The notes below the pieces were generated by a model. It was given only the letters and a program-made list of their open reading frames with translations. It was not told the origin of the DNA and did not search any database. From a virus: 21,175 bases of DNA. The DNA is taken from positions 1-21,175 of IMG/VR virus record IMGVR_UViG_3300036715_001483; one strand, given 5' to 3'. This document shows, piece by piece, positions 681 through 12,017 of this stretch. Positions within the stretch are counted from its first letter, which is position 1, and each line of letters opens with the position of its first letter. A program made the position numbers and the translations under genes.

Positions 681-1283
681 ATGTTCGTTACTATTGAGAC
701 CCTTACACGTCCATCACTGGATGTTAAGTTCCCGACGGTTCATCTCGAAGGTGACCTCGGTGCTGCACTTACTGAGCAAGCAAACGCCCGTAAGACCAGT
801 GCAGCTTGGGTTGGTGCGTCGTTTGAGAAGAGTGAAGACGGCCTGACCGCTGTGATCACCAATATCTGGACTGACAAGGCTGGTAAAGATGAATTCGTTC
901 GTAATCATCCTGAGATTGTTAAGCGTGCAGCTGATCTGCGTGATGAATACATGAAGGCTAACGGTATTACCAGCACTATTAGTGCTCAAGTTGAAAACAT
1001 GACTCTTGCAAATGCAAATGCACGTTTGATTAACGCTCGTGAACGTAGCAAGAGGGTAACTGCTGCACGTCTTGCTCGTGCTGCCAAGGCTGCAAAGGCT
1101 GCTGCTGATGCAAAGGCTGCCTCGACTGCTACGACTGCTACGACTGCTACGACTGCTACGACTGCTGCCAATACGACTGCTGCCAATACGACTGCTGCCA
1201 ATACGACTGCTGTCAATACGACTGCTGCCAATACGACTGCTACGACTGCTACGACTGCTACGACTGCTACGACTGCTGCATAA
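681..1283 (+). CDS. Hypothetical protein with Ala/Lys-rich segment and Thr/Ala/Asn tandem-repeat tail
   Basis: This 200-aa protein starts at an ATG preceded by a good AGGAG site (668-672). Residues 1-107 look like an ordinary folded domain of mixed composition, with predicted helices around the DEFVRNHPEIVKRAADLRDEY stretch. Residues about 108-147 are Ala/Lys/Arg-rich and likely a basic helix. Residues 148-199 are a low-complexity tail built from TTA and ANTTA units encoded by nearly identical DNA repeats. I do not recognise the family. The tail could be a spacer or an exposed virion-surface arm; the preceding late-promoter-like box weakly favours a structural or late role. A strong terminator follows 18 nt after the stop. 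A long antisense ORF across the repeat exists only because the repeat lacks stops on both strands. Confidence 0.75.
   Translation: MFVTIETLTRPSLDVKFPTVHLEGDLGAALTEQANARKTSAAWVGASFEKSEDGLTAVITNIWTDKAGKDEFVRNHPEIVKRAADLRDEYMKANGITSTISAQVENMTLANANARLINARERSKRVTAARLARAAKAAKAAADAKAASTATTATTATTATTAANTTAANTTAANTTAVNTTAANTTATTATTATTATTAA
1122..1277 (+). repeat. In-frame tandem repeat array (9-mers flanking 15-mers)
   Basis: The order is one variant 9-mer (TCGACTGCT), four ACGACTGCT units, five 15-mers of the form GCCAATACGACTGCT, then four more ACGACTGCT units. The fourth 15-mer has one change (GTC for GCC at 1212-1214, Ala to Val). All units are multiples of three, so gain or loss of units changes tail length without breaking the frame. 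Near-identity at the nucleotide level, including third positions, indicates recent expansion or homogenisation. Confidence 0.95.
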
Positions 1284-2578: not shown

Positions 2579-3034
2579 ATGTTAAGTATTGCATGGTTAG
2601 CCTTTAGAGACACTGTTGGGAAGCTGCTCAAGGATTGGCGTATCATCGCGTTGATCCTTGTCGGTATTATTGTGGCACTGATTTATGTAAAGATTTACGT
2701 TTTACAGCACAAGCTTACAAAGGCACAGGATGCCGTGCTTGTTGAGCAACAGCATTCACAAGCATTGCAGACAAACTTAAACCAGGCTGTTAAGATCAAC
2801 GAGGAGAATGCCGTTGTGATTACTCAGCTGCAAACAGATAAGCAAAATGTGTTGGCATCTGTTAACAAGCTTAATACTGAGCTTCAACGAACCAGCAATA
2901 ATGTCAATCAGATCAAGGATCGAATCAATGCGTTAACGGTTGCTCCTACACAACTTACACCTTACTTGTCTGAAGCAGTCAAGGGTGTACAAGAGCTACG
3001 CGATGCTGAAGCTCAATCGGAGGACAAGAAATGA
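2579..3034 (+). CDS. Rz: i-spanin (Rz-like), inner-membrane lysis protein
   Basis: The 151-aa protein has a cytoplasmic N-terminus, one strongly hydrophobic segment at about residues 22-43 (IIALILVGIIVALIYVKIYVL), and a long periplasmic helical region rich in Gln, Asn, Lys and Leu (about 45-130) suited to coiled-coil formation. This is the usual architecture of Rz-type i-spanins, which join an outer-membrane lipoprotein to fuse the two membranes in the last step of lysis. Its stop overlaps the start of the downstream lipoprotein gene by ATGA. An AAGGAG site precedes the ATG. Architecture and gene order make the call good despite low sequence conservation in this family. Confidence 0.8.
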   Translation: MLSIAWLAFRDTVGKLLKDWRIIALILVGIIVALIYVKIYVLQHKLTKAQDAVLVEQQHSQALQTNLNQAVKINEENAVVITQLQTDKQNVLASVNKLNTELQRTSNNVNQIKDRINALTVAPTQLTPYLSEAVKGVQELRDAEAQSEDKK

Positions 3035-3345
3035 AAAAGCTGCTTATTGCCTTTATGGCTTTATCATTGTCTGGCTGTGCACACTTCCTTTGTAAAGAGC
3101 CGGATCAAATTGTCAAATACAAGTACATTGTAACAACGGTACCTGATGACTTATTAACCATCCCGGCTCCGATCTATAAAATTGACCCTACAAAGGCAAC
3201 TGATAAAGAAACAGGTCTGTGGATGATAGATTCAGAGCGTAGAGCTATTGAGATTGAGAAAAAGCTGAAGCAAATCAAAGAGCTGCAAGATAAGCAACTA
3301 CAAGATATGAAAAAGCTACCGGCTGATGATGTGATCACCAAATAA
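3031..3345 (+). CDS. Rz1: o-spanin (Rz1-like) lipoprotein
   Basis: The 104-aa protein has a classic lipoprotein signal: K2-K3, a hydrophobic core, and the lipobox L13-S14-G15-C16, predicting acylation of Cys16 and outer-membrane anchoring. The mature part has a short Pro-containing stretch (IPAPIYKIDP) and a charged helix rich in Lys, Glu and Gln (about 66-95) that could pair with the Rz coiled coil. The start overlaps the Rz stop by 4 nt and is served by GGAGG inside the Rz gene. It is a separate-overlapping arrangement, not the fully embedded one of lambda. The stop codon lies inside the terminator stem. The lipoprotein implies a Gram-negative host. Confidence 0.8.
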   Translation: MKKLLIAFMALSLSGCAHFLCKEPDQIVKYKYIVTTVPDDLLTIPAPIYKIDPTKATDKETGLWMIDSERRAIEIEKKLKQIKELQDKQLQDMKKLPADDVITK

Positions 3346-3371
3346 GAAAGGCACCTTTCGGTGCCTTTCTT
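3344..3371. terminator. Bidirectional terminator between convergent operons
   Basis: A perfect 12-bp stem (AAGAAAGGCACC at 3344-3355 with GGTGCCTTTCTT at 3360-3371) with a 4-nt loop TTTC has A-rich and T-rich flanks on both sides. It can terminate the + strand lysis cassette and the - strand oxygenase-like gene. The stop codon of the o-spanin gene (3343-3345) and that of the opposing gene (3370-3372) both sit in the base of the stem. Confidence 0.9.
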
Positions 3372-4005
3372 ATACTACATCATTAAACCAGGTTCGCATG
3401 TCACCTGGGAAGTTCTTCGGGTCATAGAGCCAAAGACCGTCAGCACAGATATGGAATCGAACAAGCTGCAGCTCACCTACTTGGATAGAGGTAGTCAGTG
3501 AGATGAAACGTTCACAAGCTGGATACACTACCATTGTACCGACTTGCGGTTGGAAGCCAAAGTTATAGACAGGAAACTCGAGCTTGCCGCCGTAGACATG
3601 CTTCTTAAGGTCAAACGGTGGGGCATCATTGAAGTCCTTCAACCAAATAACCCCTGTCAGGTCACGGTCATTCACACGAATCCACTTCTTGCGCTTGTAG
3701 ACAGCATTTTCACAATGCGGTTGCTCTGCCATTTGCCCATTAGTAACTGGGAATTGCTGGAACACCAAGCGTTCAGTTCCCCTGTACTTGATGCCAAAGT
3801 GCTTTTCAATCTGAGGGATGTACTGTTTGATTACGTTGAACAACGTAGTCTCATGTTCCTTATGCTGACGAGCTACTGGTTGTGCAACCCCATCTTCATC
3901 TACAGAGGGTTGCACTCTAAGATCAGCTGCAATCTTGTAGCAGAGATCGGCGTCAACCACATGTTGAAATACTAGAAAGGGTGATTTGCTTGCTTGTTCT
4001 GTCAT
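3370..4005 (-). CDS. Divergent 2OG-Fe(II)-oxygenase-like protein
   Basis: The 211-aa protein resembles the double-stranded beta-helix core of prolyl-4-hydroxylase-type oxygenases. It has an N-terminal helical part, then QPHCENA with H97-x-E99 in place of the HxD iron motif, then LTGVIWLKDFND, GGKLEFPVYNFGFQPQVG and a TMVVYP strand typical of the family's GG.L.F...P..G.lv.FP segment. In the last motif, where family members have H...V...G.R, I read S169 and L179 (FISLTTSIQVGELQL), so the distal iron His and the 2OG-binding Arg appear absent. It may be inactive, use other ligands, or only share the fold. It is transcribed alone from a likely CATAAATA promoter and ends in the shared terminator. 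Fold call moderate, catalysis uncertain. Confidence 0.55.
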   Translation of the reverse strand: MTEQASKSPFLVFQHVVDADLCYKIAADLRVQPSVDEDGVAQPVARQHKEHETTLFNVIKQYIPQIEKHFGIKYRGTERLVFQQFPVTNGQMAEQPHCENAVYKRKKWIRVNDRDLTGVIWLKDFNDAPPFDLKKHVYGGKLEFPVYNFGFQPQVGTMVVYPACERFISLTTSIQVGELQLVRFHICADGLWLYDPKNFPGDMRTWFNDVV

Positions 4006-4057: not shown

Positions 4058-5506
4058 TTACTCTTCCTCTACTTCAATGTTGCTTGGGTTTGTTGCTATC
4101 ACCTGTGTACCGTCGGCATTGTATACTAACACCGGCAATCCGATCATTTTTAACAGGTTGCGACCGATAAGGGCCTCATACTTCATACCTGCACGGTCAG
4201 TGATGGTAAATTCCACCTGGTTGTAACGCTTACCACGGAAGACTACATCAAGCTTGATCACAGGCCGTGCATTCTTACCATGGGCATTGCGAATCTTGAT
4301 CTGGCGATCGATTGGCACCTTGTAGGTAATTTCACCACGAGTAAAGCGAATCCAATTATTCAGCTCCTCAACCTTGTCAACATGCAGGCTAGAGTATGCG
4401 GCACCTGTGTCAACACGGGCTTCAATGTCACCGTTTGTTAAGCGCACGATAGTCAATTTTTCAACATCGGTCAACGGTGCATCTGGGGATGTAGGCCCTT
4501 GCCCGGTTTGCTCAGGTTCAGCAATTTCAATGTCTGGGTCACCAGGAACTGGGTTACCGGGTGCAACATTGCTATCAAGCGTTGCACAGAATTCAACAAC
4601 CATCTTTGCAAGGTCGCGCTCACCTTCCCAGTCTTTTTGAATTGCTTCAAGGCCCGGGGAACCGTTAACCTCTAGGACGATGATCTCGTCGCCGACCATG
4701 ATATAATCGATAGCACAGAAACGACAACCAAACAGGTCAACAATCTTACGTCCGATCGCAAGTTCTTCTTCAGACGGTTCATACTTTTGCGTAGTGGAAC
4801 CGAGATGCGAGTTGGTACGGAACTCATCCTTCTCTTTAGGTTGCATGCGGAGGTTTGCTGCAAGCATCTCTTCACCGATCATGATGATCCGAGCTGACTT
4901 GTCATGCTCGATGAACTCTTGCAGCATAATCTGTACATCCTGTGCAATGAATGCTTGTGCAACAGATATTAAGGATGAACGGCTATCTACCTTCATCACA
5001 CCGATGCCATGGGTACCACGCAAGGTCTTGACGATCATTGGGAACTTCAAGTTACCTTCAGCTTCAGCAAGCTTCAGTGCCGGTTCAAGCATATTAGCCG
5101 ATCCTACGGCCATGCTCCATGGTGTACGAATGCCGGCGTTGTTCAGCACAACTTGGGAACCGAGCTTGTCATTACACAGCGCCATGGATTCTGCTGAATT
5201 TAACATGCAACCGCCATGAAGCTCCAAACGACGCAGGACCCCTAACTTGTATTCTAAATCATGTTCGTTCAGGCGTGGAATGCACACATAAGGTGTCTCC
5301 AACTGGATGAGTTTAGGCTCCTCACCTTCCTCGTGGCAGGTCTGAAATACTACTTTTGAGGCTGCATCCTTTGTTGTCGATTGCTCAATGAGAGCTGTTT
5401 TTGTAATGTCTACGATTTGTGCTTCATGATTCAGCTCTTCGGCGTGCTTAACAAAGAGTGCAGCGATCTCACTTTTAGGTTCAGCGGTAATGATAAACAA
5501 CTTCAT
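4058..5506 (-). CDS. Fusion: RimK-like ATP-grasp ligase + retropepsin-like protease (DUF785/RimB type)
   Basis: This 482-aa protein has two recognisable parts. Residues 1-305 are a RimK-type ATP-grasp ligase: N-terminal Rossmann-like strand, PMIVKTLRGTHGIGV (155-170, K160 and the Gly-rich loop for ATP), QEFIEHD (196-202), and the metal-binding triad region CAIDYIM...VLEVNGSPGLE (D267, E279, N281). A Pro-rich linker (about 315-345) leads to residues 350-475, which match the retropepsin-like family once called Zn_protease or DUF785: ARVDTGAAYSSLH with the D366-T-G-A motif, and TDRAGMKYEALIGRNLL. RimK adds glutamates to the C-terminus of ribosomal protein S6 in bacteria, and the partner protease RimB trims such tails. 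Here a writer and a possible eraser appear in one chain. It starts by ATGA overlap with the upstream gene and has GGAG nearby. The substrate is unknown. Confidence 0.85.
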   Translation of the reverse strand: MKLFIITAEPKSEIAALFVKHAEELNHEAQIVDITKTALIEQSTTKDAASKVVFQTCHEEGEEPKLIQLETPYVCIPRLNEHDLEYKLGVLRRLELHGGCMLNSAESMALCNDKLGSQVVLNNAGIRTPWSMAVGSANMLEPALKLAEAEGNLKFPMIVKTLRGTHGIGVMKVDSRSSLISVAQAFIAQDVQIMLQEFIEHDKSARIIMIGEEMLAANLRMQPKEKDEFRTNSHLGSTTQKYEPSEEELAIGRKIVDLFGCRFCAIDYIMVGDEIIVLEVNGSPGLEAIQKDWEGERDLAKMVVEFCATLDSNVAPGNPVPGDPDIEIAEPEQTGQGPTSPDAPLTDVEKLTIVRLTNGDIEARVDTGAAYSSLHVDKVEELNNWIRFTRGEITYKVPIDRQIKIRNAHGKNARPVIKLDVVFRGKRYNQVEFTITDRAGMKYEALIGRNLLKMIGLPVLVYNADGTQVIATNPSNIEVEEE

Positions 5507-6306
5507 TTAATGGCTCCACGGTCATATAGTTCTTGGTACTTATCACGCTTGATTGCAATGGCTTTACCACCTACCCAAACCTCACGACCGATTGGCAGCT
5601 GAGTAGAATCAGGTGTCATCAGCTCATAGCCGTTATCATCTGGATCAAACAGCTCATTTAAGTACATCATGGCATTGCCACGACGTTGTGCAAATTTAAT
5701 AAAGCGTTGCACATCAATACCTGCATCAGGCAGCTCCTTAGCCACGGCTACTTGCTTAATGCTGATCGGCTCAAGCGCGCTGAGCATGTTCTTAATGTCT
5801 TTGTAGTTTTGTGGATCTTTATATTCAACATCAAGCCCGACCGCATTTGCAACCTTGTACAGGCTCTCAAACCAAACGGCAATCCCTTCATTGTCAACCT
5901 TAGGGAGCTGTAATGCTATTGCGGCCTTCTTAAAGCTGCGAGTCAGTGCTGTATCACTAGTTACTGTAATACGTACACCGTCCAATGGGATGATGACGTA
6001 CATGCTGCCTTCACCACTTGCTTCGGCAACCTCACGGCTAGTATATGCAACAATGGACCGTGCACGGTTAGGGTAACGTGACCAGCTTGGAAGCTCAGCG
6101 ATCAATGATTCGATGTAAAATTTAGGACGCTTGGAGCCAATTGTTGGGTTCAACAGCAGAAAGTCTGAAGATGACCGAATAAGCTTAAAGATCGGAGTAC
6201 GTTTTGCCAGGGCATGTGAGTTGCGAGCTGAATGCTTGAGCAGGTCAAGAAATTTTAGCTCGCTGATCTTGCTCTCACGTTGTTCAGCTATTTCAAACAA
6301 CTTCAT
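5503..6306 (-). CDS. Hypothetical protein with capsid-targeting-like N-terminus, possibly ADP-ribosyltransferase-like
   Basis: The 267-aa protein begins MKLFEIAEQ. The first eight residues resemble the short T4 capsid-targeting peptide that ends in (I/L)-x-E and is cut by the prohead protease; I-A-E|Q would be the cut. The body contains ELPSWSRYPNRARSIVAYTS (about 70-90) followed by MYVIIPLDGVRITVTSD (about 102-118), an arrangement reminiscent of ADP-ribosyltransferase-like proteins found near late genes of other T4-type phages. I cannot confirm a catalytic Arg/Ser/Glu set, so this is only a suggestion. It overlaps its neighbours on both sides by ATGA, forming a tight operon with the 144-aa gene and the ATP-grasp/protease fusion, and could deliver an effector to the new host. 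Confidence 0.6.
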   Translation of the reverse strand: MKLFEIAEQRESKISELKFLDLLKHSARNSHALAKRTPIFKLIRSSSDFLLLNPTIGSKRPKFYIESLIAELPSWSRYPNRARSIVAYTSREVAEASGEGSMYVIIPLDGVRITVTSDTALTRSFKKAAIALQLPKVDNEGIAVWFESLYKVANAVGLDVEYKDPQNYKDIKNMLSALEPISIKQVAVAKELPDAGIDVQRFIKFAQRRGNAMMYLNELFDPDDNGYELMTPDSTQLPIGREVWVGGKAIAIKRDKYQELYDRGAIK

Positions 6307-6737
6307 CTCTTATAACCCTTTAGAGCATCAGCCAAGGAGTTACGCTTGATGCTAAGACCTGCTAACCGGCGCATATCAGCTAAGACTTTTTCTTCAAAGA
6401 CAGAAAGATCTACAACTTGATCTTGTTGTAGTTCGGGTTGGTCATCCGGGCCGGTCTTCGGTTGGGTCATTGATTGTGCACCGCTGTCATCAGTTGTTAC
6501 TGTGGCGCTGACATTTTCGAGCTCACTGCGTAGGCTAGCAATCTCTTGTTCGACCTGTTTAATGATAGCCTCACGGTTCTCATAGATTGTTACAGTTGAC
6601 GATAGTGCCCGCAGTTGAGAAACCAACGTGACCCAGAAGTTAATAGCGGTAATCATTTCGTCATTTGTACCGATGAACTTTGGGGTGATCAGTGGGTGCA
6701 TGCTTTCGATCAGTGTTTGGATGTTTTTTGTTTGCAT
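6303..6737 (-). CDS. Hypothetical protein with coiled-coil
   Basis: The 144-aa protein is not recognised. Residues about 1-50 are helical and amphipathic, about 52-76 (ENREAIIKQVEQEIASLRSE) form a probable coiled coil, 78-105 are a polar Thr/Asp/Gln/Pro-rich linker, and 108-144 are again helical, ending in basic LKGYKR. There is no signal peptide or membrane segment. The layout suits a small adaptor or structural component. It is the first gene of a three-gene operon with ATGA overlaps. GAGAG precedes the ATG, and a TAAATA box lies 53 nt further upstream. Confidence 0.6.
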   Translation of the reverse strand: MQTKNIQTLIESMHPLITPKFIGTNDEMITAINFWVTLVSQLRALSSTVTIYENREAIIKQVEQEIASLRSELENVSATVTTDDSGAQSMTQPKTGPDDQPELQQDQVVDLSVFEEKVLADMRRLAGLSIKRNSLADALKGYKR

Positions 6738-6790
6738 AAGGTTGCTCTCTGTGTCAAAACTTTAAGAAGGGCTAACTTGTTCTGTATGGG

Positions 6791-6798
6791 TATTTAGC
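6791..6798 (-). promoter_or_regulatory. Candidate late promoter box GCTAAATA
   Basis: The TAAATA core lies on the - strand in the 172-bp gap between the exonuclease gene and the 144-aa gene, 53 nt before the ATG at 6737. It is the best promoter-like element seen there, but two of eight consensus positions are mismatched. Confidence 0.3.
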
Positions 6799-6913
6799 AC
6801 CAGCAACCGGTTAGACTGTGTTGATGGAGATAACAACAGCCATTACAATGTTTGCTCATGCTGTTCACCAAGGAACTGTGCAACATCATACATGACTCGT
6901 ATAGCTGTTTCAT
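6794..6913 (-). CDS. Possible small Cys-rich ORF coupled to the exonuclease gene
   Basis: A 39-codon ORF begins with an ATG that overlaps the exonuclease TGA as ATGA, the same overlap used by at least five other gene pairs here. Its C-terminal 15 residues hold five Cys (CNGCCYLHQHSLTGCWC). A competing 16-codon ORF in another frame (6843-6893, MYDVAQFLGEQHEQTL) looks more protein-like but has a weak ribosome site. At most one is likely real, and neither may be. Confidence 0.2.
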   Translation of the reverse strand: MKQLYESCMMLHSSLVNSMSKHCNGCCYLHQHSLTGCWC

Positions 6914-7614
6914 TGCTTTGCCGCTAACTTTTCCATTTCATCATAAAATTCACCGGTACGAGCAGCCAGTTGAACAATTAGATCATCGGTAATCCGATGC
7001 TTGAACACCATTGGGAGCTTGTTTTCAACTCCCATCAGGATAACCAGTTTTTCAATCTTGGTACCAAACATCTCATTATGTGCAAGTGCATAGAATGCTG
7101 TTTGAACCCAATAATCCTCGATGTCTTCCTTGTTCTTGGCCCGTGTTGATGATTTATAGTCAACAATGGATAGCTCACCCTCATAGTCAGCAATCATGTC
7201 ACAACGACCTGCAATGCCTAAGTCATGGGAATAAAGCACAACCTCTTGACCATAGACTGTATTTACCTTGTTGAGCGCGACTTTCAAGCTGTTGAAAAGC
7301 TTAACATGCTCGGGTGGGAACTCATTAGTCTTTGGGTCCTCATGACGCATGTAACGCTCAAGCATAAGGTGCATATTTGTGCCACGGTCTGTAGCACGCT
7401 TGGAGACTCGAGCTGCTTCAGCTTCACCGACACGATTTTTCCATGCGGTCAACCATCCTTTTTGCTCTTCGGGGACGGTGTGACCAAGCACAGTAGTAAT
7501 TGACGGGTATGCCAACTCAGGGCTTAGCTCGTAGAAACGACGACCAAGCACAGTGATCGTCTGTTTATCTACATATGGGAAGCGGTTAAGCTCTAATACT
7601 GCGCGTGATGCCAA
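6910..7614 (-). CDS. PD-(D/E)XK exonuclease (Cas4/RecB/MGME1-like)
   Basis: The 234-aa protein carries the nuclease core in order: R78-G-x3-H82 helix motif (RGTNMHLMLERY), E124 in QEVVLYS, D139 in GRCDMIA, D152-Y-K154 in SIVDYKSS, and the Q171-x3-Y175 motif (WVQTAFYA). These are the metal-binding D, the D/E-x-K pair and the QxxxY motif of RecB/Cas4-type exonucleases. In phages such enzymes process recombination ends, degrade host DNA, or trim replication products. The start is TTG at 7614, supported by AAGGGG a few bases before and by the absence of any earlier ATG. It follows the 652-aa gene by 2 nt, so it shares that operon. Family call is strong; the exact polarity and role are not known. 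Confidence 0.85.
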   Translation of the reverse strand: MASRAVLELNRFPYVDKQTITVLGRRFYELSPELAYPSITTVLGHTVPEEQKGWLTAWKNRVGEAEAARVSKRATDRGTNMHLMLERYMRHEDPKTNEFPPEHVKLFNSLKVALNKVNTVYGQEVVLYSHDLGIAGRCDMIADYEGELSIVDYKSSTRAKNKEDIEDYWVQTAFYALAHNEMFGTKIEKLVILMGVENKLPMVFKHRITDDLIVQLAARTGEFYDEMEKLAAKQ

Positions 7615-7616
7615 GA

Positions 7617-9575
7617 TTACCCCTTAGACTCATTTGCTGCATTCAGTAAGTCATTAACTTGTTCTGGGTTAAGCTCGATGCGAGATGCAGCACCTACTTG
7701 TTTCAGCACAGCTGAACGACCACGTGGTGATACAATGTACTTCTTGTCATTAGTATCGTGTACACTTATCGTTTCACGGTTTGTAAGAGCTTTGAGCAGG
7801 CGCTCAAGGTTCTCTTCAATAAATTCAGCATCACCAACTTTGACACCGTCATCGGTTGCTTCGATAGTCAGCTTATCAATCTCATCAGCTTCGGTAATTG
7901 TACCGTTAGCTTTAGCCTTTTCAGCAAGTTCATCAACACGACGGCCGATTACCTTGAGTGCAACACGGATAGCAAACTTTTCTTCACCTTTTGCTCGAGC
8001 TAGCTTTGATGCAAGATCACCATCACTCATTCTCTTCAGTTCAGGCATCAATGTTCTGACACGGTTGTAAACAGCATCAGTGAGCTCAGCAACAGTACCT
8101 ACCGCCTTTGCTGCATCAATGATCTCGGGATCACGAGTTGCTTCAGCAAGTGCTTCGCCCTTGTAGCCATTCTTCTTCAGCTCAGCCTTTACATGGTCAA
8201 GCGATGAGTTAGGCCATGTCTTAACCTTCTTAAATGGTTGAGAAGCTTCGGTCATTGTGTAGTTATAGTGACCATTTTGCCAAATGATGAAGCTGCCGTT
8301 ACCCTTTTTAACACGACAGATAAAGTTAGCACCTTCAGTAACGGTGTCTTTTGCCTTCAGCGATGCAAGAATGCCTTTCAGGCTTTCAACAACAGGTTCA
8401 CGATTTAGCTCCTGTTCTACAGCATCAAGACGAGTCTTGATAGCGGAAGGCAAAGATGTTACACCTTGTTTGATACTACGCAGCAGAGTCTTAGCCGCCA
8501 TGGTGTTCAGCACGGCTGCAGCAAGCTTCTTGCCTTGTGATTGGTCAGCCATGTTGAACATACGAGTAACTAACTCAACTGCATCATCACCGGTTATTGC
8601 CTCTGCAACCGGTTGGGACAGTGTATTCATGGTCTCAACGGCTTGTGCAAGGCTATTAAGTTTGGTACGCAAGGTAGTGCCGACCTTCGTGTTGAGGAAG
8701 GATAACGAGCGCTTCTTCAAGTTTTGGTACTTACTGTCATTGAAGAGAGTTTCAGCATCAACACCTTTGCGTGACTTATCAAGGGCTTTTAGTGCGCTTT
8801 CAAATGCGGACCAGAATACATCAGCATTGCTTTCTGTCAGCAAGGATTCTTCGATTTGATCAGGTTCTTTAGCATTTTGGTCAATGGTGCGCTTCACAAA
8901 TATACGCAATGCTTGCTTCATCGACGAATTGTGCTGCAGCTGCATTGCAAGCTCACGAATATTACGGATGATTGTTGCACGATATGGGCTACGATCAAGT
9001 GCAACTTCAGGGATGCCAAGCTCAAGGATTGCTTGCAGGATCAGCTGTTGGTTAGGTGAGGTTAAGCGCGATACAATCCCACCTGGGATACCTTCGGCTA
9101 TTACATTGTTGGTCATAAAACGTTCTCCATAGCTCATGTTCTCTACACGTGGCTTAAGCTTTTGCTCGAGCTCTTTATTGGCTTGTGCATTATCATACAC
9201 ATCCGGGTTGAGCACTTCGCTACCGTCATCGGTCAGCTCATCATCCGGATTATCATCTTCATCTTTGTCAGGCCATTCAACGTCAACAATATCAACCTCT
9301 TTTGATGCAAGGTTGATTGCCTCTTCGATGTCATCGACCTTGCCCAATGCTTGAGACATGATCTTTTCAAACTTTTCGGCATCCTTTTCGGCAACATATA
9401 CTTTTACGATCTTACCGTCATCGGTCTCAAGACCAAATGACACGGTATCGACCTCATCGAGTGATGCTGCACGGTTGAGGCGGTCCATTATATCCGCTTC
9501 AAGGTTGGCGTCCTCGTTGAGCTGGAAGCCGAATTCAGGTGCGAGCTCTGTCACGGTTTTGAACAGCTCTTTCAT
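7617..9575 (-). CDS. Large hypothetical protein with many candidate prohead-protease sites
   Basis: The 652-aa protein is mostly helical and charged and shows no enzyme motif I recognise. An acidic segment (WPDKDEDDNPDDELTDDG, 101-118) lies after a small N-terminal domain. A compact segment at about 418-471 (FICRVKKGNGSFIIWQNGHYNY to HVKAELKKNGYK) may be a separate alpha/beta domain. The chain has several tripeptides of the h-x-E type followed by a small residue, as cut by T4 gp21-like proteases: IAE|G at 159-161, LTE|S at 246-248, LAE|A at 476-478, ITE|A at 560-562, with weaker VAE|A at 323-325, VTE|G at 412-414 and MTE|A at 441-443; the N-terminus itself reads MKELFKTVTE. A processed internal head protein is a reasonable guess. 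It starts as TAATG with the upstream stop and has AAGGAG. Confidence 0.7.
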   Translation of the reverse strand: MKELFKTVTELAPEFGFQLNEDANLEADIMDRLNRAASLDEVDTVSFGLETDDGKIVKVYVAEKDAEKFEKIMSQALGKVDDIEEAINLASKEVDIVDVEWPDKDEDDNPDDELTDDGSEVLNPDVYDNAQANKELEQKLKPRVENMSYGERFMTNNVIAEGIPGGIVSRLTSPNQQLILQAILELGIPEVALDRSPYRATIIRNIRELAMQLQHNSSMKQALRIFVKRTIDQNAKEPDQIEESLLTESNADVFWSAFESALKALDKSRKGVDAETLFNDSKYQNLKKRSLSFLNTKVGTTLRTKLNSLAQAVETMNTLSQPVAEAITGDDAVELVTRMFNMADQSQGKKLAAAVLNTMAAKTLLRSIKQGVTSLPSAIKTRLDAVEQELNREPVVESLKGILASLKAKDTVTEGANFICRVKKGNGSFIIWQNGHYNYTMTEASQPFKKVKTWPNSSLDHVKAELKKNGYKGEALAEATRDPEIIDAAKAVGTVAELTDAVYNRVRTLMPELKRMSDGDLASKLARAKGEEKFAIRVALKVIGRRVDELAEKAKANGTITEADEIDKLTIEATDDGVKVGDAEFIEENLERLLKALTNRETISVHDTNDKKYIVSPRGRSAVLKQVGAASRIELNPEQVNDLLNAANESKG

Positions 9576-10495
9576 TACGCTTTCTCCTTAGATGATTTGA
9601 AATGGGCCGGAGCCTTAAATTTGATAGCCTTAAAGCGACGAATACGTTTTTTGATTCGCTTATTTTGCTTCTCTGCATCCTTTTTGCTGCCTACCTGATG
9701 GTTAGACAGTTTAATGAACTTCATAGTGTTTGACAATGCAGCTTCTTGTTCAGAAGGGCCGTTGTCAATGATAGCATTTGAGGTTGAGCCGATGCTTGCT
9801 GCACTGGTGCCTGCAATAGCAGCACTGTTACCTGCAATAGCAGCACCTTCACCATCTTCGCGCAACCGGCTAAAGCTTACAATCTTCATAGCTGCAGCCG
9901 CAATGTCATTGACCATTGTTGAACCGGCCAGCTCACGCATACGGCTGAGCAATGATGATTTGGGGTCAGATTGCATCAGATATAAGAATGAATCACCTAC
10001 AGCACGACGACGAGCACCGGAGCTGAGCGAGTCCCACTTGAACAGGCTCTTCAATATTCGATCAAACAGCGAGCTGTTAAGCTCAAAGCGATGACGCAAC
10101 AGCACCATGCTGCCACAAACCTCTTGCCAGTTGATTTGATCAGGAGGTGTGAGCAGCACCTTCATTGTCTTTTCAATGCGTGCTTGTAGAATGCGTCCTG
10201 CGTCAACATTAAGCATATCAGCATGGCCGTGTTGCAGGTTCTTCTTAACAAGTGGGTCATTAGGGAAGAACAGCGCACGACCCCAAAAATTGACATCGCT
10301 CATGTTAGGGCCAAATTTGGTAAGCTTTGCGTGAGTTGGGTCATTGACCAGCAGCAAGCCTTTGAGGTCTTGTAAGCGCAACATAACCAGCGCCGCTAGG
10401 TAGTTTGCGAAGAACGCATTTTTTACACCATATGAGTCCATGCCTTGCAAGCGATGGACCAGAACTGACTGGTTTAATTCAAATAAGATGTTCAT
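9575..10495 (-). CDS. Hypothetical protein with AIAG-repeat linker and basic tail
   Basis: The 306-aa protein is not recognised. Residues 1-209 are a helical, folded region. Residues 213-242 are a low-complexity Gly/Ala/Ser linker with AAIAGNS-AAIAGTS-AASIGST repeats, matched by a 16-nt direct repeat in DNA (9810-9825 and 9831-9846). Residues 271-306 are very basic (KKDAEKQNKRIKKRIRRFK) and could bind nucleic acid or act as a packing tail. It overlaps the ligase-like gene by ATGA and the 652-aa gene by 1 nt, so the three are translated from one message. Position in a probable late operon suggests a virion or head-internal component; this is inference. Confidence 0.65.
   Translation of the reverse strand: MNILFELNQSVLVHRLQGMDSYGVKNAFFANYLAALVMLRLQDLKGLLLVNDPTHAKLTKFGPNMSDVNFWGRALFFPNDPLVKKNLQHGHADMLNVDAGRILQARIEKTMKVLLTPPDQINWQEVCGSMVLLRHRFELNSSLFDRILKSLFKWDSLSSGARRRAVGDSFLYLMQSDPKSSLLSRMRELAGSTMVNDIAAAAMKIVSFSRLREDGEGAAIAGNSAAIAGTSAASIGSTSNAIIDNGPSEQEAALSNTMKFIKLSNHQVGSKKDAEKQNKRIKKRIRRFKAIKFKAPAHFKSSKEKA
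9810..9846 (-). repeat. 16-nt direct repeat encoding AIAG linker
   Basis: CCTGCAATAGCAGCAC (given on the + strand) occurs at 9810-9825 and again at 9831-9846, 21 nt apart. On the coding strand it gives the repeated AAIAG units of the 306-aa protein's linker. Confidence 0.85.
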
Positions 10496-11982
10496 TCAGT
10501 AACCTCTGCATGCATCTCATCAATGGCCGAGCTAAAGAACACATTTAATAGCTCCTCCATTGTGGAGGCCTCTCGTACGGAGGTAAGCAGCTTGTTGACG
10601 GTCTTATGAGCTTCAGCAAAAGTCATTAATGTTCTACGTTTGATCTCAGGTGTATATTTAACCTTCTTGCCGTCGGCAAGCTTGAGGCTCATTTTGTCTG
10701 CATTCTTCTTAAAGTCCTCAAGTTCCTCATCAAGATCCACTAAAGCGTTGGTCAAGATAGCACGCATCTTACGCTTGATGGCTTCAAACTTCAGGCTATG
10801 AAGTGATTCTGCAATCGACTGAAGGGTCTCCTTCTTGGAGCTGCCTTTGAATTTTTCAAGCACCTTCTTAGCTTGGGATGGAACCTCGGTACCTGGGATA
10901 CCGAACATCCGAACACAACGGATCTTTGCATCCCCAACAATGCCGCCCCGTGACTCAATGTCGGCTTCATCATTGGCTGTTGAGATACGACCAGTTAAAC
11001 GGTTACGAACCTCATAGTTGAATTTGTTGACAGCGGTAAACTCTTCTTTGTCAACAACTTTGAATTGCTCTTTTGTCTTCGGGTCTGTTAAGATAATGCC
11101 TTCAATACCCGAGTATCCATTTTGTGCATCCGGATTCTGGCCGCGTAAGGACGGCTGAAGACTATTGACCACCTTAAGTATTTTCTTCTTGATCGGCATC
11201 ATGTACTTATCATGCACGATCTGAGTTAAGCGGTCCTTCTCATCCTTCAGTTTTGGACTGCGGTGCTTTAGTACTTCGAAGTTTGTCAGGTCGAAACCTT
11301 GATTATATGCAGCCTTGTTGATCTTTTTCAAGAAAGCTTCAAGCTCCTTGACATCATCCATCACATCAGCATGTGCAAGCTTCTCCGGTTGCACCGGATC
11401 TGACTTACTAAAGCCCCAATCGGTGATTTTTGGTGCACGTATAATGTTTGAACCATCGGTAGTATCACTAATCTTAGTTTGAACTGTAATCCGCTGATTC
11501 TTAAGCCTGTCATACAGCTTTGCTGGCAGGTTATCGTCAAGCTCCTTGGATGGATCATCACCAGGGATGGCTTCAAGGAATGCAATGTAGCTGAGGTTGT
11601 TTTTACCGTAGATGACTGTATTAGGTTGTGCACCAAACAGGATCTCACAGTTAACAGCTGTACCGGCTTGCACGATCTTTTTGATTGTGTCTTGCACCTT
11701 TTCAAGCACTGCATGTGCAGTTTTGAAGCCGTCATAGGCTGAATGTGCTGGGTAGTCGGTTACCTTGTAGAATCGCTTACCACCCTTTTGCTCTCGTGAG
11801 GTGTATAGCTTGCCCTCACGGTCGATACCCATAATTAGGTTTGCACCGTCTAGCTTTTGAACAGCCTTTAGCTGGTCAAGGCCTTTGATGAGCCGTAGGA
11901 AGGTCTCTACTGGAAGGTCTTCGATATGGGTGATCCCATATCCGGCTTCATTAAGCTGGAGGAATGATTTGAATGTTCGCAT
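10492..11982 (-). CDS. DNA/RNA ligase-fold nucleotidyltransferase with capsid-targeting-like N-terminus
   Basis: The 496-aa protein has the covalent nucleotidyltransferase motifs in order: motif I K43-L-D-G46, the conserved Arg region TSREQKGGKRFY (61-72), motif III VNCEILFG (E113), motif IV EGIILTD (E294-G295), and motif V FKVVDK (K308, K312). Lys43 is the predicted AMP acceptor. A helical domain of about 180 residues with no known OB-fold motif follows. ATG 11982 is preferred over the upstream TTG (11997) because it gives MRTFKSFLQLNEA, very like the T4 internal-protein peptide MKTYQEFIAEA, with L-N-E|A as the likely cut. The ribosome site is weak (GAGA). It heads an operon with the 306-aa, 652-aa and exonuclease genes. 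Whether it joins RNA, DNA or modifies another substrate is unknown. Confidence 0.75.
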   Translation of the reverse strand: MRTFKSFLQLNEAGYGITHIEDLPVETFLRLIKGLDQLKAVQKLDGANLIMGIDREGKLYTSREQKGGKRFYKVTDYPAHSAYDGFKTAHAVLEKVQDTIKKIVQAGTAVNCEILFGAQPNTVIYGKNNLSYIAFLEAIPGDDPSKELDDNLPAKLYDRLKNQRITVQTKISDTTDGSNIIRAPKITDWGFSKSDPVQPEKLAHADVMDDVKELEAFLKKINKAAYNQGFDLTNFEVLKHRSPKLKDEKDRLTQIVHDKYMMPIKKKILKVVNSLQPSLRGQNPDAQNGYSGIEGIILTDPKTKEQFKVVDKEEFTAVNKFNYEVRNRLTGRISTANDEADIESRGGIVGDAKIRCVRMFGIPGTEVPSQAKKVLEKFKGSSKKETLQSIAESLHSLKFEAIKRKMRAILTNALVDLDEELEDFKKNADKMSLKLADGKKVKYTPEIKRRTLMTFAEAHKTVNKLLTSVREASTMEELLNVFFSSAIDEMHAEVTE

Positions 11983-12017
11983 CCGCACTTGTCTCAACTA
12001 ATAGCATTTAATGCTTC

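What the first reader, a model, noticed from the sequence alone, without database searches (positions are those of the whole stretch)
4058..5506. ATP-grasp ligase fused to a retropepsin-like protease: a possible writer and eraser of amino-acid tails in one phage protein
The N-terminal ~305 residues have RimK-type ATP-grasp motifs (K160, GTHGIGV loop, D267/E279/N281). The C-terminal ~130 residues have the DTGA active-site motif and the IGRNLL segment of the DUF785/RimB retropepsin-like family, joined by a Pro-rich linker. In bacteria RimK elongates poly-Glu tails on ribosomal protein S6 and RimB trims them as separate proteins. A single phage chain could reset host ribosome tails, edit a tail to a set length, or modify a virion protein. 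Fusion into one lytic-phage polypeptide next to other putative modifying enzymes is unusual.
Basis: partly seen in the sequence, partly recalled or inferred. Interest (0 to 1): 0.75.

Follow-up and report, generated by a model that had tools for sequence, protein, structure and literature searches.

The report
Phage enzyme fusing glutamate-tail writer and trimmer
A bacterial virus carries one protein that joins an enzyme of the kind that adds glutamate tails to proteins with a protease of the kind that trims them, and its sea-going relatives carry what looks like the address label that phage T4 uses to pack proteins into its head; activity, packaging and target have not been tested.

Summary
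It encodes 482 aa: a RimK-type ATP-grasp ligase (Pfam 97.7 bits, cut-off 21), a disordered Pro-rich linker and a DUF785/RimB-type retropepsin domain (58.3 bits, cut-off 27), confirmed by AlphaFold2 and structure searches. Key active-site residues are invariant in 83 of 83 aligned fusions. The novelty claim needs trimming: a RimB-RimK hybrid is published and its protease works, but bacteria place the protease first (8 of 8 long fusions read), phages last. Only 3 of 50,697 phage records showed the fusion; 400 viral-contig stretches encode relatives. Two features are new here. (1) In the marine branch, 67 of 71 loci have a T4 capsid-targeting-type N-terminus with an L/I-x-E site, against 14 of 1,625 other ORFs; in T4 the motif finds only IPII and IPIII. 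A YerA41 relative, without the motif, is listed as virion-associated. (2) The window's branch lacks the tag but ends in a Glu cluster (11 of 13 distinct members; 11 of 1,034 background genes), resembling a RimK acceptor. Best reading: a poly-glutamate tail writer/trimmer, head-packaged and injected in the marine branch, perhaps self-tailing in the window's. Activity and substrate untested.

The parts
4058..5506 (-). Whole gene: 482-aa RimK-type ATP-grasp ligase fused to a retropepsin-like protease
   Evidence: ORF; Pfam PF08443 and PF05618 above cut-offs; AlphaFold2 model
4583..5506 (-). RimK-type preATP-grasp + ATP-grasp domain, residues 1-308
   Evidence: PF08443 97.7 bits; VIA Z 32.7 to P. 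aeruginosa RimK 7qyr, 2.4 A over 288 residues
5027..5029 (-). K160, ATP-binding lysine; followed by the G164-V170 loop (GTHGIGV)
   Evidence: K160, G167, G169 invariant in 83 of 83
4466..4582 (-). Pro/acid-rich disordered linker, residues 309-347
   Evidence: pLDDT below 50 at 313-339; variable in length and sequence in relatives
4133..4465 (-). Retropepsin-like (DUF785/RimB/RloA fold) protease domain, residues 348-458
   Evidence: PF05618 58.3 bits; own AF2 model pLDDT 86.9; Z 14.9 to RloA2 9g59 and DUF785 2pma
4403..4411 (-). D366-T367-G368 catalytic motif
   Evidence: invariant in 83 of 83
4061..4132 (-). C-terminal tail, residues 459-482, ending EVEEE: candidate glutamate acceptor
   Evidence: 467-482 pLDDT below 50; at least 3 Glu in the last 5 residues in 11 of 13 distinct branch members against 11 of 1,034 background genes
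5503..6306 (-). Upstream gene (PHROG 12810, function unknown) overlapping the fusion start by 4 bases; conserved neighbour
   Evidence: upstream of the fusion in 9 of 9 related loci L006-L014 (7 distinct fusions), gaps 6-1,431 bases; some relatives begin with a tag-like N-terminus, e.g. L008 MNLNFKHFLNEG
3370..4005 (-). Downstream 2OG-Fe(II) oxygenase-like gene; conserved neighbour
   Evidence: PHROG 61, weak, E 0.0044, no Pfam hit; 27-610 bases downstream of the fusion in 9 of 9 loci L006-L014 at 59-66% identity, on the opposite strand in L010

Best explanation
The gene makes one bifunctional enzyme of poly-glutamate tail metabolism. The N-terminal RimK-type domain uses ATP to add glutamates to a C-terminal carboxylate. 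The C-terminal retropepsin-like domain, acting as a dimer across two chains, binds and trims poly-Glu tails and may also stimulate the ligase, as RimB does for RimK. Shown here by sequence and model: both folds, both intact active sites, three conserved poly-Glu-binding positions, domain order inverted relative to bacterial RimBK. Inferred: activity, dimerisation, substrate, timing. In the marine branch the enzyme carries a T4-type capsid-targeting propeptide, so it is most likely packed into the head, clipped after L/I-x-E by the gp21-type protease, and injected with the DNA to retail host proteins (ribosomal protein S6 is the obvious but unproven candidate) at the start of infection. In the window's jumbo-phage branch the propeptide is absent; the conserved Glu-rich flexible C-terminus suggests the enzyme can tail itself (autoglutamylation, trimmed by its own protease domain) and/or acts on a host tail after being made in the cell.
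For: Profiles above Pfam cut-offs. RimK and RloA/DUF785 folds. Catalytic residues invariant in 83 of 83. Of the seven Pseudomonas RimK residues that touch a bound poly-Glu chain (PMC10092738 section 3.3), R64, R189 and N262 align with R78, R206 and N281: R206 and N281 invariant in 83 of 83, R78 in 34 of 34. RimB cleaves poly-Glu and raises RimK ATPase activity fourfold (PMC11957791). Head-targeting tag: 67 of 71 marine loci (56 distinct proteins) against 14 of 1,625 other ORFs, 12 of those 14 on two contigs; the same motif in T4 hits 2 of 632 ORFs, ipII and ipIII. N-terminal targeting and the L/I-x-E cleavage rule: PMC9026906. A prohead core scaffold/protease protein is annotated in Mosig and PF03420 is found in the two jumbo relatives above 300 kb (2 of 6 records searched). 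YerA41 homologue listed as virion-associated by LC-MS/MS (PMC7354516 Table 3). Glu tail in 11 of 13. Conserved flanking genes in 9 of 9 close loci.
Against: Nothing shows activity. NCBIfam equivalog cut-offs for E. coli-type RimK (89.8 against 331), RimB (32.9 against 200) and RloA3 (54.9 against 210) are not met, and rimK_fam is just missed (138.6 against 143.4), so S6 specificity cannot be assumed. The window protein has no head-targeting tag. YerA41_066, the one homologue with virion data, lacks the motif too (its N-terminus is MNTLNQSPARRLLNKFEAAD), and YerA41 virions held 63 phage proteins including replication enzymes, so association there may be carry-over. Window and marine branches are only 24-28% identical. 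The two S6 proteins I read, from MAGs that also held a related locus, end in DAN and GIDD, not Glu. L199 (34% identical) lacks the Glu tail, L013 has DDDEK, and the marine branch has none (0 of 71). RimK residues S68 and R216 are not kept in the window protein, H215 and R216 not in the marine consensus.
Confidence: 0.58

Rival explanations
1. Not a glutamate-tail enzyme but a different ATP-grasp peptide ligase (LysX/ArgX-, glutathione- or peptide-natural-product-like) whose protease domain cuts some other phage or host peptide.
For: Equivalog cut-offs for RimK and RimB are missed by wide margins. LysX/ArgX structures follow RimK in the fold ranking at Z 25.4-28.6. The Mosig and YerA41 homologues are annotated or noted as glutathione synthetase-like.
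Against: RimK structures top both PDB rankings, 3 to 4 Z units above the next family. The three mapped poly-Glu contacts are invariant. The fused partner is the poly-Glu protease family, which also joins RimK in bacteria.
Confidence: 0.2
2. The substrate is host ribosomal protein S6: the phage resets S6 tails to bias translation, as RimK/RimB do in Pseudomonas.
For: Known RimK/RimB substrate (PMC11957791); injection at the start of infection would suit host takeover, as with T4 Alt (PMC9026906).
Against: No S6-specific feature tested; RimB does not need the S6 fold; the two S6 proteins read here lack a terminal Glu, though neither is from a known host; host of the window phage unknown.
Confidence: 0.3
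3. The enzyme works during head assembly or on virion proteins rather than on the host.
For: Head-targeting N-terminus in marine relatives; virion association in YerA41; some neighbours in the window branch have tag-like N-termini.
Against: [quoted passage not shown] No predicted protein with 5 or more consecutive Glu in G001, G002 or Mosig, one in YerA41. The prohead has no obvious ATP supply (inference).
Confidence: 0.15
4. The capsid-targeting resemblance is fortuitous or serves another purpose.
For: Short motif, defined after seeing these N-termini; no cleavage shown in any of these phages; the virion-associated YerA41 homologue lacks it.
Against: 67 of 71 against 14 of 1,625; 12 of the 14 others lie on two contigs where several different-looking proteins share such an N-terminus; same spacing as T4 ipII/ipIII, the only T4 hits.
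Confidence: 0.22

Closest known systems
RimBK hybrid (Desulfotalea psychrophila DP2392; mostly Flavobacteriales and Rhodobacterales), PMC11957791
   Same: RimB-type retropepsin and RimK-type ligase in one chain; the hybrid has protease activity on poly-Glu RpsF
   Different: Protease is N-terminal there and in 8 of 8 bacterial fusions read here; C-terminal in the phage proteins. In the protease-domain tree the bacterial hybrids sit among bacterial stand-alone RimB, apart from the phage proteins
RimK + RimB, separate proteins (Pseudomonas rim operon)
   Same: Same two folds, catalytic residues and three poly-Glu contacts
   Different: One polypeptide, about 25% identical to RimK structures, fails RimK/RimB equivalog cut-offs, phage-borne, beside phage replication genes rather than in a rim operon
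RloA/RloC (Pseudomonas rlo operon), PMC12239564
   Same: RloA3 is the best-scoring NCBIfam retropepsin model (54.9 bits); RloA/RloA2 are among the nearest solved folds
   Different: RloA carries a signal peptide and is in an operon with RloB and RloC (passages); none of that here
R2K-family ATP-grasp peptide ligases of phages (PMC4431377, PMC7824862)
   Same: Phage ATP-grasp ligases predicted in print to modify host proteins (passages)
   Different: A different, divergent ATP-grasp clade; no protease fusion mentioned in the passages seen
T4 internal head proteins (IPII, IPIII)
   Same: Marine relatives share the N-terminal targeting and cleavage pattern
   Different: A peptide-ligase/protease cargo; the window's own protein lacks the tag
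Cyanophage 'S6 glutaminyl transferase' (PHROG 2599; PMC6722890) and Melnitz ATP-grasp protein
   Same: Phage RimK-type ATP-grasp; Melnitz also carries the tag (MTQKFSQFITEE from a TTG start)
   Different: No protease domain (296 and 349 aa)

Membership tests
RimK family (PF08443) | Profile match above the curated cut-off | tested here: met
   97.7 bits, cut-off 21
RimK family (PF08443) | ATP-grasp catalytic Lys, Asp/Glu/Asn and RimK fold | tested here: met
   K160, D267, E279, N281 invariant 83/83; Z 32.7, 2.4 A, 288 residues
S6--glutamate ligase RimK (NF007764 equivalog) | Equivalog score cut-off | tested here: not met
   89.8 against 331 bits; TIGR00768 subfamily 138.6 against 143.4, just missed
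S6--glutamate ligase RimK (NF007764 equivalog) | The seven residues contacting bound poly-Glu (S7, R8, S14, R64, S68, R189, N262) | tested here: inconclusive
   R64, R189, N262 align to R78, R206, N281, invariant in the sets examined; S68 is replaced by H82; S7, R8, S14 not covered by the alignment
S6--glutamate ligase RimK (NF007764 equivalog) | Adds Glu to S6 | not testable with these tools
   needs protein
RimB/DUF785 retropepsin-like proteases (PF05618) | Profile match above the curated cut-off | tested here: met
   58.3 bits, cut-off 27
RimB/DUF785 retropepsin-like proteases (PF05618) | D-T-G catalytic motif in a retropepsin fold | tested here: met
   invariant 83/83; Z 14.9 to 9g59 and 2pma
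RimB (NF052261 equivalog) | Equivalog score cut-off | tested here: not met
   32.9 against 200 bits
RimB (NF052261 equivalog) | Homodimer and poly-Glu cleavage | not testable with these tools
   monomer models only
RimBK hybrid | Both domains in one chain | tested here: met
RimBK hybrid | RimB domain N-terminal to RimK | tested here: not met
   ligase first in the window protein and the 83 aligned phage proteins; bacterial fusions read 8 of 8 protease first
T4-type internal head protein (capsid targeting sequence) | N-terminal aromatic-x-x-aromatic-[IL]-x-E in the window protein | tested here: not met
   0 of 107 window ORFs; in-frame TAA directly before the ATG
T4-type internal head protein (capsid targeting sequence) | The same in marine relatives | tested here: met
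   67 of 71 loci; not in YerA41_066
T4-type internal head protein (capsid targeting sequence) | Present and processed in the virion | tested here: inconclusive
   YerA41 homologue listed as virion-associated; no processing data, carry-over possible

The most novel reading that the evidence does not exclude
A virion-delivered protein-tail editor: T4-like marine phages pack a combined poly-glutamate ligase and protease into the head by a capsid-targeting propeptide and inject it, so that host C-terminal glutamate tails are rewritten before any phage gene is expressed; in the jumbo-phage branch of the window the same enzyme uses its own Glu-ended C-terminus as acceptor, a self-tailing, self-trimming enzyme.
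Probability: 0.33. Interest if true: 0.82.

Novelty: new variant of a known kind. Interest (0 to 1): 0.62.

Why it matters
Polyglutamylation of bacterial proteins is little explored. In the open-access library I found phage ATP-grasp ligases predicted to modify host proteins (R2K family, PMC4431377 and PMC7824862) and a cyanophage RimK-family gene discussed (PMC6722890; passages), but none reported to combine adding and trimming. A single-chain writer/trimmer with inverted domain order and both sites strictly conserved occurs in two deeply separated phage lineages. The head-targeting tag turns an annotation ('glutathione synthetase', 'structural protein') into a testable prediction: the marine proteins are in the virion, clipped at a stated bond, and enter the cell first. 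The published S6 assays of the Pseudomonas system can be applied directly.

Tried and rejected
Rejected: plus-strand reading of the ORF. A single-sequence scan of viral contigs found no relative; the alignment scan found 400 (only the best 80 could be kept, which favours full-length fusions, so no fusion-to-stand-alone ratio is claimed). The genome-contig scan found 11 loci: one long match (L086, residues 150-475, partly masked, on a contig that also holds a DNA polymerase gene like the phages') and ten matches to the ligase part only; the cap stopped a second look.

Common phage-encoded substrate: no support. No predicted protein with 5 or more consecutive Glu in G001 (501 genes), G002 (533) or Mosig (181), one in YerA41 (201); no shared Glu-ended protein stood out. 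The gene calls there are my own simple longest-ORF picks.

Head-targeting of the window protein itself: not met. A relaxed N-terminal motif (Leu also allowed) is about 3 to 4 times its internal mean at N-termini in G001 (6 against 0-5 of 298) and G002 (9 against 1-3 of 333): weak, and used only as a hint for neighbours.

Single origin of the phage fusions: not resolved. Midpoint-rooted FastTree trees show three separate groups (window branch, marine branch, bacterial) in both domains, which leaves their order open.

Iyer et al. 2009 on amidoligases is not held; I recall that it discusses RimK-retropepsin operons but could not check it, so prior mention of phage fusions there is possible. The T4 motif was first recalled, then read from the T4 record. 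Names such as KLDG nucleotidyltransferase motif and Rz/Rz1 spanins are recalled.

The PDB rows shown for the whole model are all ATP-grasp proteins, so the protease was folded and searched alone. In the viral structure library the rows shown are mostly other viral ATP-grasp proteins and stand-alone retropepsins; the first row, unnamed and 385 aa, spans 477 alignment columns at rmsd 24.4 and was not followed up.

Confidence was lowered slightly because the YerA41 homologue lacks the motif.
Full report
WHAT IS THERE. The gene at 4058-5506 is on the minus strand and encodes 482 aa. An in-frame TAA sits directly before its ATG, so there is no longer start. Its start overlaps the end of the upstream gene 5503-6306 by four bases, and a weakly 2OG-Fe(II) oxygenase-like gene follows at 3370-4005. 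By my reading of the ORFs the window also holds T4-type replication genes (gp41-type helicase, primase, B-family DNA polymerase; not searched). Its record is a 21,175-base virus contig.

DOMAINS. Pfam puts RimK (PF08443) at residues 112-294 (97.7 bits, cut-off 21) and Zn_protease (PF05618) at 349-454 (58.3 bits, cut-off 27). Stricter models are not met: NF007764 RimK 89.8 of 331 bits, NF052261 RimB 32.9 of 200, NF052264 RloA3 54.9 of 210, TIGR00768 rimK_fam 138.6 of 143.4. AlphaFold2 with 34 sequences gives mean pLDDT 81.5, with stretches below 50 only at 313-339 (linker) and 467-482 (C-terminus). The first 313 residues match RimK crystal structures best (7qyr, Z 32.7, 2.4 A, 288 residues), ahead of LysX/ArgX at 28.6; Foldseek agrees, with RimK in the first 22 rows. 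Folded alone (pLDDT 86.9), the C-terminal domain matches RloA2, Lpg0085 (DUF785) and RloA at Z 14.6-14.9 and HIV protease at about 10.

ACTIVE SITES. In 83 aligned fusion proteins (the window protein, two isolates and all 80 kept loci) K160, G167, G169, R206, R220, R230, N232, D267, E279, N281 and D366-T367-G368 never vary. The loci were found through ligase patterns, but the best-scoring 80 were kept, which favours complete fusions. The Pseudomonas RimK residues seen to hold a poly-Glu chain are S68, S7, R8, R64, S14, N262 and R189 (PMC10092738, section 3.3, read). From the alignment, R64, R189 and N262 correspond to R78, R206 and N281; R78 is invariant in 34 of 34. S68 falls on H82, and the three most N-terminal residues were not aligned. 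Both catalytic centres are therefore under strict selection, and the site for the terminal glutamate looks kept.

DISTRIBUTION. Among 50,697 phage records, tblastn with the window protein hits 27 and with the Mosig protein 26. Those matched over both domains are Pelagibacter phage Mosig ('glutathione synthetase') and Yersinia phages YerA41 and vB_Yru_GN1 ('structural protein'); more divergent fusions could be missed, since the protease part alone finds only four records. The cyanophage and Melnitz proteins read are ligase only, and three huge phages have a protease-only match. In IMG/VR the alignment scan found 400 relatives, 80 kept. They fall in two groups: nine close loci (47-55% identical in the best segment; seven distinct fusions; contigs up to 389 kb) and 71 marine-type loci at 25-30% (56 distinct). 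A second scan added members of the close group, among them one on a 360-kb contig. In the close group, homologues of g5503 (6-1,431 bases upstream) and of the oxygenase (27-610 bases downstream; opposite strand in L010) flank the fusion in 9 of 9, and the order helicase, g10492, g9575, g7617, exonuclease, g6303, g5503 is kept as far as contigs and detection reach; g6303 was not detected in L008, L009, L013 and L014. In the marine group a DNA polymerase gene lies downstream on the same strand in 55 of 71; of the other 16, four (L025, L051, L067, L082) have over 4 kb of downstream sequence without it. 'Marine' is my label for this group, from its isolates Mosig and Melnitz; the origin of each contig was not looked up.

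NOT A COPY OF THE BACTERIAL HYBRID. Little et al. 2025 (PMC11957791; [quoted passage not shown] I checked the order myself: PF05618 occurs in 55 of 289 genomes of one bacterial class. Of the 30 loci returned, the 8 with frames above 440 aa all have the protease first and the ligase second; 7 more frames of that length were listed without a locus and not read. The phage proteins are ligase first. In the protease-domain tree the bacterial hybrids sit among bacterial stand-alone RimB and the phage proteins form separate groups; a second, stand-alone retropepsin gene of jumbo phage G001 sits inside the window's branch. In that paper 'phage' occurs twice; one place, about a replisome, was shown to me, the other was not.

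HEAD-TARGETING TAG. Most marine fusions begin with sequences such as MKAPKFREFITEA. T4 internal proteins IPII and IPIII begin MKTYQEFIAEA (read from the T4 record). A review states that N-terminal propeptides of 10-19 residues target T4 internal proteins, with residues 4 and 7 of IPIII mattering for targeting and 8 and 10 for processing, and that gp21 cuts after L/I-x-E (PMC9026906, passages). One fixed motif, aromatic-x-x-aromatic-[IL]-x-E near a start codon, hits 2 of 632 ORFs in T4 (ipII, ipIII; it misses ipI and Alt), 2 of 472 in Mosig (the fusion and an internal start), 0 of 107 in the window, and in the marine loci 67 of 71 fusions against 14 of 1,625 other ORFs. Twelve of those 14 lie on two contigs, L025 and L067, where several different-looking neighbours share such an N-terminus, which is what a portable targeting tag looks like. 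The four fusions without it are L025 (Leu at the first position), L038 (truncated), L067 and L082 (variants). Cautions: the motif was chosen after seeing the N-termini, the marine fusions are related to each other, and YerA41_066, which the tree's counts place with the marine branch, lacks it. Mosig has an annotated prohead core scaffold and protease protein, and PF03420 was found in the two largest relatives of the window phage (E 8e-28 and 1e-29) but not in four shorter records.

VIRION EVIDENCE. In the YerA41 paper (PMC7354516, passages) Table 3 marks g112, 'Ribosomal protein modification protein', as found in purified particles by LC-MS/MS, in the block that I read as middle-expressed. Its place after the ribonucleotide reductase genes g109-g110 fits YerA41_066; that mapping is my inference. 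Sixty-three phage proteins were found there, including polymerases, so the evidence is weak.

GLUTAMATE TAIL. The window protein ends EVEEE in a disordered tail. In 13 distinct members of its branch 11 have at least three Glu in the last five residues and 10 end EEE, while most of the residues before differ. In the gene sets of G001 and G002 the figure is 11 of 1,034, two of these being the fusions. The marine group has 0 of 71. RimK adds Glu to the C-terminus of RpsF, whose encoded ends are DNADE in P. fluorescens and GDSEE in E. coli; RimB needs six or more contiguous Glu, or five if an encoded one counts (PMC11957791 section 7). EEE is thus a plausible acceptor that is too short for the enzyme's own protease until extended. 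That is an inference; branch members are related, so the 11 are not independent.

MECHANISM. Shown: fold, sites, order, tag and tail as sequence features. Inferred: a glutamate-tail writer/trimmer; dimerisation of the protease half; packaging and injection in the marine branch; self-tailing or action after synthesis in the window branch. Open: the target. S6 is the known RimK/RimB substrate, but RimB does not need the S6 fold, and the two S6 proteins I read, from MAGs that also held a related locus, end in DAN and GIDD; neither MAG is known to be a host.

VERDICT. Real, correctly read by the first stage apart from the unstated strand, and a new variant of a known kind. The strongest new point lies in the relatives: the marine fusion looks like an injected internal head protein. 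Earlier papers predict that phage ATP-grasp ligases of another clade modify host proteins (PMC4431377, PMC7824862; passages). Searches of the open PMC library showed me no paper describing a phage RimK-retropepsin fusion or its head-targeting tag; I saw listings and passages, subscription papers are not held, and Iyer et al. 2009 could not be read.

Noticed in passing
10492-11997 (-): Conserved neighbour with a KLDG nucleotidyltransferase-like motif (RNA/DNA ligase-like, recalled) and a tag-like N-terminus MRTFKSFLQLNEA; some relatives begin MKLNFK...FLAEG.
   Followed up: partly
L119:7613-8521 (G001 147613-148521): Second retropepsin protein in the 345-kb relative, with a tag-like N-terminus; its protease domain groups inside the window's branch.
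   Followed up: partly
L067:3706-7707: Seven different-looking ORFs upstream of the fusion share an MRFK..L.E(A/S)-type N-terminus: a possible set of head-targeted proteins; they were not compared with each other.
   Followed up: no
L005:5719-6378 and 6441-11168: In a 636-kb phage a stand-alone retropepsin gene sits directly beside a 1575-aa ORF.
   Followed up: no
681-1283 (+): Protein with a Thr/Ala/Asn low-complexity repeat tail, with long ORFs in several frames.
   Followed up: no
2579-3034 and 3031-3345 (+): Overlapping pair that looks like Rz/Rz1 spanins (recalled pattern; not searched).
   Followed up: no
L004:82-1131 (Melnitz-3): Ligase-only protein with the same head-targeting-type N-terminus, TTG start: the tag can go with the ligase alone.
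   Followed up: partly
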